Part shown: positions 42,522-55,374 of the stretch, piece after piece | Layout of the letters: each line of letters opens with the position of its first letter | Numbering within the stretch: the stretch's first letter is position 1 | DNA from: Vicinamibacterales bacterium | GTDB taxonomy: Bacteria > Acidobacteriota > Vicinamibacteria > Vicinamibacterales > UBA2999 | Assembly (NCBI GenBank): GCA_030680175.1 | Contig: JAUXWO010000090.1 | Coordinates: forward strand, 73,933 to 132,192 | DNA length: 58,260 bases | Direction: 5' to 3' | Made by a program: the position numbers and the translations under genes | Notes under the pieces: generated by a model | What the model saw: the letters and a program-made list of their open reading frames with translations, nothing else | Database searches by the model: none | Told to the model about the DNA's origin: nothing

Positions 42522-42725
42522 ATGAAGACCACCGTGGATATTCCTGATGACGAGCTGGCGGATGCCATGCGGTTCACCAAGGCGGCCACGAAGCGGGAGG
42601 CCATCGTGACGGCCATCGTGGAGTTCAACCGCCGCCGACGGATGGCCGAACTGACCAGGCGCGCGGGCACCTGCGTCGATCTGATGACGGTGGACGAGTT
42701 GCGCGCGGCGCGGCGGCGCAACTAG
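42522..42725 (+). CDS. vapB: VapB-type antitoxin (ribbon-helix-helix)
   Basis: 67 residues: MKTTVDIPDDELADAMRFTK, then ATKREAIVTAIVEFNRRRRM, the pattern of VapB (DUF2191-type) antitoxins whose N-terminal ribbon-helix-helix binds DNA and whose C-terminus (ELTRRAGTCVDLMTVDELRA) wraps the toxin. Its TAG stop is formed from the TA target and first base of the inserted repeat element; without the element the stop would be TAA two bases before vapC. Confidence 0.87.
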   Translation: MKTTVDIPDDELADAMRFTKAATKREAIVTAIVEFNRRRRMAELTRRAGTCVDLMTVDELRAARRRN

Positions 42726-42831
42726 TGGAGTGTATCGACTGAAGTGGTACTACCGGCGCCTCTGCTCAACCGCGATTCCGCGGGCCGCCCAACGGGCGGC
42801 CCGGTAGTAAGTAGTCAACAACACTCCACTA
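42723..42831 (+). mobile_element. TA-flanked structured mini-element, copy A (between vapB and vapC)
   Basis: About 105 bp between two TA dinucleotides (42723-42724 and 42830-42831) with perfect terminal inverted repeats GTGGAGTGT/ACACTCCAC. Inside are ACTACCGG/CCGGTAGT (42749-42756, 42801-42808), CCGCG/CGCGG (42770-42774, 42779-42783) and GCCGCCC/GGGCGGC (42784-42790, 42794-42800) stems. A second copy is at 55262-55374. It encodes no protein. TA flanks and size fit a MITE moved by an IS630/mariner-type transposase, which is an inference; no transposase is in the window. Confidence 0.75.
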
Positions 42832-42834
42832 ATC

Positions 42835-43203
42835 ATGGTTCTGGTCGACTCGTCCTCGTGGATTCACTTCCTGCGCGCCGACGGCGACCCCGCCGTTCGC
42901 ACCAGAGTCGAGGCCCTGCTGCACGCAGGCACCGCGCGATGGTGCCCACTCGTCCGGCTCGAGTTGTGGAACGGCGCGGGGGGTGAACGCGAGAAGAAGA
43001 TCCTCCGGGAGTTCGAGCGGCTGATCCCGGAACTGTCGATCACGCCTGCGGTCTGGGACGAGGCGTTCGACCTGGCGCGTCGTTGCCGTGCCGCCGGGGT
43101 GACGGTGCCGGCGACGGATCTGCTGATCGCCGCGTGCGCGCGACACCACGCGGCGGCCCTGGAGCACGCGGACGCCGACTTCGACGACATCGCCGGGGTT
43201 TGA
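42835..43203 (+). CDS. vapC: VapC-type PIN-domain ribonuclease toxin
   Basis: 122 residues with the PIN-domain acidic residues: Asp5 (MVLVDSSSWI), Glu43 (RLELWNGAGG), Asp95 (PATDLLIAAC) and the C-terminal Asp113/115 cluster (HADADFDDI). VapC toxins cleave tRNA or rRNA. Its ATG lies 3 nt after the right end of the mini-element, so its coupling to vapB is now interrupted by 109 bp. The stop codon overlaps the -35 of the tRNA-Ala promoter. Confidence 0.9.
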   Translation: MVLVDSSSWIHFLRADGDPAVRTRVEALLHAGTARWCPLVRLELWNGAGGEREKKILREFERLIPELSITPAVWDEAFDLARRCRAAGVTVPATDLLIAACARHHAAALEHADADFDDIAGV

Positions 43204-43244: not shown

Positions 43245-43320
43245 GGGCCTGTAGCGCAGTTGGGAGCGCGCCTGAATGGCATTCAGGAGGTCACCGGTTC
43301 GATCCCGGTCAGGTCCACCA
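43245..43320 (+). tRNA. tRNA-Ala (GGC)
   Basis: 76 nt including an encoded CCA. The acceptor GGGCCTG pairs with CAGGTCC and contains the G3-U70 wobble that marks alanine tRNAs. The anticodon arm is CCTGA-ATGGCAT-TCAGG with anticodon GGC at 43278-43280; the T arm is CCGGTTCGATCCCGG. The last 22 nt are repeated 100 bp downstream. Confidence 0.96.
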
Positions 43321-43398: not shown

Positions 43399-43420
43399 TC
43401 GATCCCGGTCAGGTCCACCA
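43399..43420 (+). repeat. Second copy of the tRNA-Ala 3' end (22 bp)
   Basis: TCGATCCCGGTCAGGTCCAC plus CA is identical to 43299-43320, the end of tRNA-Ala including CCA. The 78 bp between them (43321-43398) hold no gene. Period is exactly 100 bp. Confidence 0.9.
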
Positions 43421-47647: not shown

Positions 47648-47742
47648 GGAAGCGAACGGGGCCCGGTGGCCCTCCCGGTCTTCAAAATCGGTCGCCGCCC
47701 TCTCGGGGGCGGGCTGGGTTCGACTCCCAGGCGCTTCCGCCA
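47648..47742 (+). tRNA. selC: tRNA-Sec (UCA), selenocysteine
   Basis: 95 nt with encoded CCA. Acceptor GGAAGCG pairs with CGCTTCC, discriminator G. The anticodon arm CCGGT-CTTCAAA-ATCGG holds anticodon TCA at 47682-47684. A long GC-rich variable arm (GCCGCCCTCTCGGGGGCGG) and T arm CTGGGTTCGACTCCCAG follow. These are the hallmarks of bacterial selC, so the organism should decode some UGA as selenocysteine. No selenoprotein was noticed in the window. Confidence 0.95.
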
Positions 47743-55261: not shown

Positions 55262-55374
55262 TACTGGCGGTGTGCATCGACTGAAGAGGTACTACCTGCC
55301 TCTCCCTTCAACCGCAGCTTCTGCGGGTCGCTCAACGGGCGGCCCGGTAGTGGACCGTCAACAACACTCCACTA
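55262..55374 (+). mobile_element. TA-flanked structured mini-element, copy B (between thiD and moaE)
   Basis: Second copy of the element at 42723-42831, same orientation, between TA (55262-55263) and TA (55373-55374). Shared blocks are ATCGACTGAAG, GGTACTACC, CAACGGGCGGCCCGGTAGT and GTCAACAACACTCCACTA. The left end is diverged (CTGGCGGTGT), so the terminal repeat is imperfect. Stems are kept: CCGCAG/CTGCGG replaces CCGCG/CGCGG, and GTCGCTC still pairs with GGGCGGC through two G-U pairs. The right end is 7 bp before the moaE ATG. Confidence 0.75.

What the first reader, a model, noticed from the sequence alone, without database searches (positions are those of the whole stretch)
42723..42831. 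Mobile ~110-bp structured element inserted between vapB and vapC, with pairing-preserving changes relative to a second copy
Copy A (42723-42831) and copy B (55262-55374) share blocks over their whole length and lie between TA dinucleotides. Within the shared fold the differences keep pairing: stem CCGCG/CGCGG in A is CCGCAG/CTGCGG in B (a G-C pair replaced by A-T), and GCCGCCC becomes GTCGCTC, both changes giving G-U pairs with the unchanged GGGCGGC. That pattern argues for selection on an RNA structure rather than just DNA palindromes. Removing copy A with one TA leaves AAC TAA TC ATG, i.e. a vapB stop two bases before the vapC start, the tight coupling expected of vapBC. So the element is a recent insertion that changed the toxin-antitoxin mRNA. 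I do not recognise it as a named family.
Basis: partly seen in the sequence, partly recalled or inferred. Interest (0 to 1): 0.75.

Follow-up and report, generated by a model that had tools for sequence, protein, structure and literature searches.

The report
Mini-transposon family landing on stop codons
A 109-base jumping element without a transposase gene sits between an antitoxin and a toxin gene; its relatives are scattered through this Acidobacteria-group genome at CTAG sites, about half of them on the stop codons of genes, which the element's own first bases rebuild.

Summary
Copy A (42723-42831) is a real mobile insertion, one of at least 93 copies in the host genome; 76 of 84 full-length ones are exactly 109 nt. 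Ends are TAGTGG…CCACTA; flanks C|TA…TA|G in 82 of 93: target CTAG, TA duplicated, as for IS630-group transposons. Intact IS630 elements in related genomes share target and TAGT ends; no partner transposase was found in the host draft. Best reading: a new IS630-type MITE family, much like pneumococcal RUP. New here: 51 of 93 elements carry a neighbouring gene's stop codon on their first three bases, equally at both ends; free CTAG sites are rare and mostly stops (17 of 29), which explains it. The RNA-selection claim from A versus B fails: 0 of 17 predicted pairs have both-sided changes in 52 copies. But the internal hairpin changes less than the rest of the element and one of its pairs covaries across genera. 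Its role is unknown.

The parts
42723..42831 (+). Element copy A, both terminal TA included (109 nt)
   Evidence: one of at least 93 copies; not seen upstream of 16 homologous vapC genes
42723..42733 (+). Left terminal inverted repeat TAGTGGAGTGT; its first three bases TAG are also the vapB stop codon
   Evidence: inverted repeat I1; ORF 42522-42725
42821..42831 (-). Right terminal inverted repeat, ACACTCCACTA on the + strand
   Evidence: (I1), 100% complementary to the left arm
42782..42802 (.). Conserved internal hairpin GGGCCGCCC-AAC-GGGCGGCCC
   Evidence: Best kept part of the family: 14 of 1520 G/C cells changed against 230 of 3760 elsewhere; its outer pair covaries between genera
42522..42725 (+). 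vapB antitoxin gene, ending on the element's TAG
   Evidence: PF09957; ORF; junction also
42835..43203 (+). vapC toxin gene (PIN domain), start now 109 nt after the vapB stop (1-2 nt in the closest homologues)
   Evidence: PF01850; homologues
55262..55374 (+). Element copy B, degenerate (113 nt), just upstream of moaE
   Evidence: MoaE
55325..55345 (.). Internal hairpin of copy B, GGGTCGCTC-AAC-GGGCGGCCC
   Evidence: two changes against copy A that leave G-U pairs

Best explanation
The feature is a MITE: a short non-autonomous DNA transposon with the ends and target of the IS630/Tc1-mariner group. A transposase supplied in trans (inferred, not found in the host draft) moves it into the TA of CTAG, duplicating TA (supported by flanks, tandem junctions and element-free homologous vapBC loci). 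Because CTAG is rare in this genome and most free sites lie where a codon ending in C meets a TAG stop, about half of the landings fall on stop codons; both ends begin TAG, so the stop is rebuilt whichever way the element lands and the protein is unchanged (shown by gene models and profile matches). At vapBC it landed on the vapB stop and moved the vapC start from about 2 nt to 109 nt away, putting a strong hairpin between them; weaker vapC translation is expected but inferred. The internal hairpin is kept by some constraint on the element or its transcripts whose nature is not shown.
For: Copies: 93 placements score above 60; 84 align over the full length and 76 of these 84 are exactly 109 nt. 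82 of 93 have C before and G after the TA-bounded element; 72 of 93 left and 60 of 93 right junctions read CTAG. Tandem copies share one TA. A second family with the same ends and 109-nt length but another interior has 6 full copies. Empty sites: none of 16 vapC homologues outside the host shows the element in the 70 nt displayed upstream; the four closest have stop + 1-2 nt + start. Stop landing: in a non-overlapping gene set 54 genes end inside an element, 52 of them on its first three bases (50 TAG, 2 TAA; 26 at each end; 51 of 93 elements). In relatives, with a looser gene rule, 27 at that place against 22 elsewhere inside, from 60 elements. Profile hits reach the C-terminus in 9 of 10 tested genes ending on an element. 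IS630's preference for CTAG: title of Tenzen and Ohtsubo 1991, seen in the reference list of PMC2170065. Related IS630 copies: 7 of 23 loci gave ends starting TAGT, all 7 in C|TA...TA|G.
Against: No IS630 transposase (PF13358) in the host draft, nor in G145 with 18 matches or G002 with 9, and no fetched IS with exactly these ends; 143 contigs may hide one. An internal hairpin better kept than the ends is not what a simple deletion derivative predicts. Outside the host the target is looser: only 27 of 60 elements have C...G flanks, the rest mainly C...A, T...G and T...A. No empty site from a near-identical strain was available: the closest vapC homologue is 79% identical. One copy of the second family (L064) has CTAA on both sides, which a 4-bp duplication would also explain.
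Confidence: 0.86

Rival explanations
1. The element is, or has become, a functional RNA or mRNA 3'-end element: after landing on stop codons its G+C hairpin protects mRNA ends or limits read-through, and the host keeps it, REP-like.
For: The hairpin resists change; in copies on stop codons 8 of 836 hairpin G/C cells changed against 18 of 741 in other copies (no test between the groups was run); one pair covaries between genera; divergent-gene settings are the rarest, 7 of 93.
Against: Copies away from stop codons keep the hairpin better than their other parts too; no orientation bias (26 and 26); no run of T after the hairpin in either direction (sequence of copy A); ends and target are explained by transposition; no RNA data.
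Confidence: 0.2
2. One reading: a structured RNA mobile element selected through base-pair-preserving changes such as those between A and B.
For: Both copies fold, A strongly. The quoted differences exist. The 26-32/81-87 stem has 10 both-sided cells among 80 copies.
Confidence: 0.08
3. Integron attC-like or REPIN-like element mobilised by a tyrosine recombinase or a Y1 transposase.
For: Similar length and hairpin; gene stops lie on the ends, and starts are sometimes close to them, as in cassettes.
Against: TA-bounded inverted ends in CTAG, both orientations equally at genes, and the attC core motifs (recalled) are not seen by eye in the family alignments. No integrase search was run.
Confidence: 0.02

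Closest known systems
RUP, repeat unit of pneumococcus (Streptococcus pneumoniae, with IS630-Spn1)
   Same: 107 bp, 108 to 110 copies per genome, inverted ends paired in the predicted fold, TA target, IS630-type ends (passages of PMC2229807; passages of PMC3049150)
   Different: Different bacteria; here no matching IS was found in the host, the target is CTAG, often at gene ends, whereas RUP was proposed to favour IS elements, and here an internal hairpin is conserved between genera
IS630 / ISY100 group (Tc1/mariner superfamily)
   Same: TA duplication, preference for CTAG (IS630), cut-and-paste at inverted ends (passages of PMC2170065); intact relatives in the same bacterial family have TAGT ends in CTAG
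   Different: The element has no transposase gene and its ends match no fetched IS exactly (12 of 14 bases between L161 and the right end of G145 copies; read)
Correia/NEMIS elements of Neisseria
   Same: About 105-107 bp for the short form, TA at the ends, inverted ends, stem-loop transcripts (passages of PMC2229807)
   Different: Sequence not compared; no CTAG stop-codon landing is mentioned in the passages read
REP/REPIN repeats
   Same: Palindromic repeats proposed to act in termination or mRNA stabilisation
   Different: REPs are 20-40 bp (start of the abstract of PMC3733652); here a TA-bounded element of 109 nt with terminal inverted repeats

Membership tests
MITE (miniature inverted-repeat transposable element) | Short, multi-copy, no transposase gene | tested here: met
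   109 nt, at least 93 copies
MITE (miniature inverted-repeat transposable element) | Terminal inverted repeats | tested here: met
   11 nt perfect in copy A; alignment of 52 copies
MITE (miniature inverted-repeat transposable element) | Target-site duplication and empty sites in relatives | tested here: met
   TA on both sides; homologous vapBC loci lack the element. The closest is 79% identical, so the exact ancestral bases are inferred
MITE (miniature inverted-repeat transposable element) | Related autonomous element supplying the transposase | tested here: inconclusive
   No PF13358 in the host; IS630 copies with similar but not identical ends in relatives
IS630/Tc1-mariner group by ends and target | TA duplication | tested here: met
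   Left end TA in 66 of 80, right end TA in 59 of 80 copies; the rest are changed in one or both bases
IS630/Tc1-mariner group by ends and target | Preference for CTAG (IS630) | tested here: met
   Host: C at -1 in 77 of 80, G at +1 in 76 of 80. Relatives are looser, C...G in 27 of 60. Literature title seen
IS630/Tc1-mariner group by ends and target | DDE (DDE_3) transposase inside | tested here: not met
   No room for one in 109 nt; therefore called a MITE of this group, not an IS630 element
RUP | Sequence match to the RUP consensus | not tested
   RUP sequence not fetched; only described properties compared
Rfam RNA family | Covariance-model hit above the gathering score | tested here: not met
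   Window: only two tRNAs; element region: one chance-level hit, E 3.5; 8 related loci: none of 8 listed hits reaches gathering
Integron attC site | RYYYAAC / GTTRRRY core sites (recalled) and fixed orientation to the cassette gene | tested here: not met
   Core motifs looked for by eye: not seen at the ends; orientation 26 and 26

The most novel reading that the evidence does not exclude
The internal hairpin (GGCCGC-GACAACGGA-GCGGCC in other genera, GGGCCGCCC-AAC-GGGCGGCCC here) is a working nucleic-acid module carried by the element: a binding or structural part needed for mobilisation, or an mRNA 3'-end device that makes insertions at stop codons harmless or useful. That would make these a self-standing, structured class of mini-transposon kept over genera, not decayed copies of one insertion sequence.
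Probability: 0.25. Interest if true: 0.7.

Novelty: new member of a known kind. Interest (0 to 1): 0.45.

Why it matters
It shows how a CTAG-seeking element can spread through a genome with little harm: where CTAG is rare in coding DNA, TAG stop codons are a main source of the CTAG sites left, and ends that start with TAG rebuild them. The rule is simple, can be tested in any genome with IS630-type elements, and predicts hairpins added just after the stop codons of dozens of genes. It also gives a natural case in which a toxin-antitoxin pair was spread apart by 107 added bases, and a mini-transposon whose inside is better kept than its ends, which needs an explanation.

Tried and rejected
RNA-selection reading from A/B covariation: rejected on 52 copies and 80 copies. 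Rfam at gathering and at E up to 5: nothing credible. A search for the partner transposase: PF13358 absent from the host, present in 5 of 7 element-bearing relatives tried and in 15 of 43 genomes of the family; 23 such loci were scanned for TA-bounded inverted ends: 7 have TAGT ends, two have TAAACAG ends (L163, L343), one TACGGTG (L164, flanks A and A), none identical to the element; the others gave weak pairs or none. Pairing of element-like ends 0.1-3.5 kb apart in the fetched loci gave nothing that I judged an autonomous version, by eye (the output was cut). Viral contigs: 1 hit to the hairpin pattern (L316, not examined) and 0 to the end pattern; plasmids: no match with one relative's copy as query. 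A protein-coding reading of the interior and a hammerhead-like CUGANGA were considered and dropped by eye. That stop landing needs a special stop-codon preference was judged unnecessary: 51 of 93 elements against 17 of 29 free CTAG sites.

Limits of the counts: one search scored 40 of 129 candidates, at most 25 and at most 9 candidates per genome, so copy and genome counts are lower bounds. The 93 placements include 9 that align only in part. Gene calls rest on my own codon-usage script, not on an annotation. A first count took the best-scoring gene near each end: 54 at the first three bases (27 per end), 14 elsewhere inside (5 at offset 17); it included one antisense reading over vapC and missed vapB, so I recounted with a non-overlapping gene set (52, 1 at offset 2, 1 at offset 6), which drops weak overlapping readings in other frames. 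A stricter coding score gave 47 (24 left, 23 right). Fisher tests treat copies as independent; the parsimony count on a tree is safer. In one search the loci overlap each other and the window in part. Rows dropped before counts: one search used 80 copies of exactly 109 nt out of 90 selected; one search used 22 of 28; one search's group comparison used 83 of 93; one search used 67 of 75 placements; one search used 60. Three host copies in the alignment are shifted at the hairpin, which adds three mismatches at the covarying pair.

Full report
WHAT IS THERE. The two sequences are at the reported places. Copy A is 109 nt from TA to TA with an 11-nt perfect terminal inverted repeat and an internal G+C hairpin; it folds far better than shuffled sequence (z -6.6). 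Copy B is an eroded relative (z -2.2; no inverted-repeat pair of 8 nt or more reported). The genes on either side of A are vapB and vapC (PF09957 and PF01850).

MULTIPLICITY. Searching the host genome (4,984,022 bases, 143 contigs) with copy A listed 50 matches although only 40 of 129 candidates were scored; copy B gave 51. The end pattern TAGTGGMSTGTNNSGWC with one mismatch allowed gave 115 places against 3 for the reversed pattern. An iterated profile over the 138 fetched loci gave 100 distinct placements; 93 score above 60; 84 of these align over the full length, 76 of them exactly 109 nt, 4 of 108, 3 of 110 and 1 of 104. Among 80 copies of exactly 109 nt the mean pairwise identity is 0.87. 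Some copies stand in tandem or head to head and share one TA. A second element family has the same ends and the same 109-nt length with a different interior, 6 full copies.

HOW IT MOVES. C precedes the left TA in 77 of 80 copies and G follows the right TA in 76 of 80; 82 of 93 have both. So the target in the host is CTAG with TA duplicated. Copies whose outer bases differ (copy A: C on the left, A on the right) indicate that the duplication is TA and not the whole tetramer; one copy of the second family (L064, CTAA on both sides) would fit either. TA duplication is typical of the IS630/Tc1-mariner group, and the title of Tenzen and Ohtsubo 1991, seen in the reference list of PMC2170065, states the preference of an IS630-associated transposon for TA in CTAG. 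In the host's own bacterial family 15 of 43 genomes have a DDE_3 transposase; among 23 such loci examined 7 have intact ends starting TAGT, each of the 7 in C|TA…TA|G, for example TAGTGTCCTGTCTC in L161 and TAGTGTCCCGTTAC in L345. The first differs at 2 of 14 bases from the right end of copies in genome G145, TAGTGGCGTGTCTC. The host draft itself has no DDE_3 match, nor have G145 or G002, which carry many copies; multi-copy insertion sequences are often lost in drafts (general knowledge), so this is not decisive. The element is therefore placed as a MITE of the IS630 group, with the partner unknown.

EMPTY SITE. VapC homologues occur in 68 of 149 related genomes including the host. Of 16 homologous loci outside the host that were fetched and examined (L287-L302) none shows the element in the 70 nt displayed upstream of vapC; the three closest (76-79% identity) read stop + 2 nt + ATG (TAG-CG-ATG, TGA-CG-ATG, TAG-CG-ATG) and the next TGA-C-GTG. 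In the window vapB now stops on the element's own TAG and vapC starts 109 nt after that stop. Loss of translational coupling, and so lower VapC, is expected but not shown.

STOP-CODON LANDING. In a non-overlapping gene set made by my codon-usage script, 54 genes end inside an element; 52 of them end on its first three bases (50 TAG, 2 TAA), 26 at the left and 26 at the right end, vapB among them, so 51 of 93 elements carry such a stop; the other two end at offsets 2 and 6. A first, looser count gave 54 at that place and 14 elsewhere inside, a stricter one 47. In 9 of 10 such genes tested, profile matches run to within a few residues of the model's end and to within a dozen residues of the stop (FliD, RseP, a deaminase, an acyl-CoA dehydrogenase, an M20 peptidase, an ATP-grasp ligase, a histidine kinase, an ArsA-type ATPase, an asparaginase; the tenth, a TPR protein, cannot tell), so the stops are natural and not truncations. 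The pattern recurs in other genomes under the looser rule: 27 at the first three bases against 6 at offset 20 and 16 scattered, from 60 elements. Target supply is enough to explain it. With 71.4% G+C the window should hold about 150 CTAG by base composition (my arithmetic); outside the elements it holds 6, of which 5 are stop codons; the fetched loci hold 23, of which 12 are stops, 10 intergenic and 1 coding. Together 17 of 29 free CTAG sites are stops (59%), against 51 of 93 elements (55%). So no special taste for stop codons is needed: a CTAG-seeker in a CTAG-poor genome lands at gene ends, and ends that begin TAG rebuild the stop in either orientation. In relatives the flanks are looser (C…G 27, C…A 12, T…G 7, T…A 5, other 9 of 60), so there TAA and other stops can serve as well; the supply was not counted there.

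STRUCTURE AND CONSTRAINT. The core hairpin (columns 60-80) is nonetheless the best kept part: 14 of 1520 G/C cells changed against 230 of 3760 elsewhere. In 22 copies that were found through the end pattern and not in the lists, and so were not chosen for the hairpin, the figures are 9 of 418 in the hairpin, 50 of 660 in the rest of the interior and 18 of 374 in the ends. On a tree, changes per G/C site are 0.74 in the hairpin, 2.63 in the rest of the interior and 2.18 in the ends (rank tests p 0.001 and 0.03). Copies on stop codons and other copies both show it (8 of 836 and 18 of 741 hairpin cells changed, against 132 of 2068 and 133 of 1833 outside).

RELATIVES. A covariance model of the host copies matched 8 of 149 genomes including the host; a model of the wider family matched 11 of 396 genomes drawn from the phylum, the host included, 8 of the 11 in the host's own family. 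The 20 divergent relatives keep 108-112 nt, TA-type ends, a motif near CACAACAAGCCTTCGACCGCGA and a hairpin like GGCCGC-GACAACGGA-GCGGCC. The pair just outside those six is paired in 66 of 67 sequences with three Watson-Crick types (G-C 41, C-G 16, T-A 8; one G-T), where 2000 shuffles gave a mean of 34 and a maximum of 47; it is the strongest covarying column pair of the alignment (z 17.8, next 7.1). Relatedness is only roughly handled by weighting. So a hairpin is conserved; whether as DNA or as RNA is open.

KNOWN OR NEW. RUP of Streptococcus pneumoniae is the nearest description: 107 bp, 108 to 110 copies, TA target, ends like IS630-Spn1, ends paired in the fold (passages of PMC2229807, and of PMC3049150). 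I saw no description of this family or of CTAG-driven stop-codon landing in the listings of my searches, which cover open-licence PMC papers only; apart from passages of four papers I saw listings and starts of abstracts. Verdict: a new member of a known kind, with two points worth following: the harmless landing rule and the over-conserved hairpin.

Noticed in passing
L051:1396-1502 (- strand) and 5 further full copies in the host genome: A second element family with the same terminal repeats and the same 109-nt length but an unrelated interior (GGGCCGTTCC...GGAACGGCCC hairpin), several of them directly adjoining copies of the first family.
   Followed up: partly
window 43245-43317 and 43400-43420: The last part of a tRNA gene (GATCCCGGTCAGGTCCACCA) is repeated about 100 bp downstream, like the attachment-site scar of a lost integrated element.
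   Followed up: no
window 47648-47738: A selenocysteine tRNA gene (tRNA-Sec, 64.8 bits), so the host probably makes selenoproteins.
   Followed up: no
L197:3274-3468, L240:5151-5299, L220:5409-5518: In relatives some copies carry extra G+C-rich sequence inserted in the loop of the core hairpin, in L197 with two similar units, which suggests a further small repeat at that place.
   Followed up: no
L091:1516-1576 and L100, about 1575-1645: Fold-back miniatures of about 60-70 nt, made of two left-end-like halves facing each other, also bounded by element-type ends.
   Followed up: no
window and fetched loci of the host genome: CTAG is about 25-fold below the number expected from base composition in the window (6 against about 150); the reason for this avoidance was not examined.
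   Followed up: partly
flanks of copies in relatives (L208, L185, L243, L226, L140, L143 and others): Outer flanks in relatives are often CATC on the left or GATG on the right, so an ATG often sits right against the element end; this may be a wider palindromic target (CATCTAGATG) or a start-codon effect (by eye).
   Followed up: no
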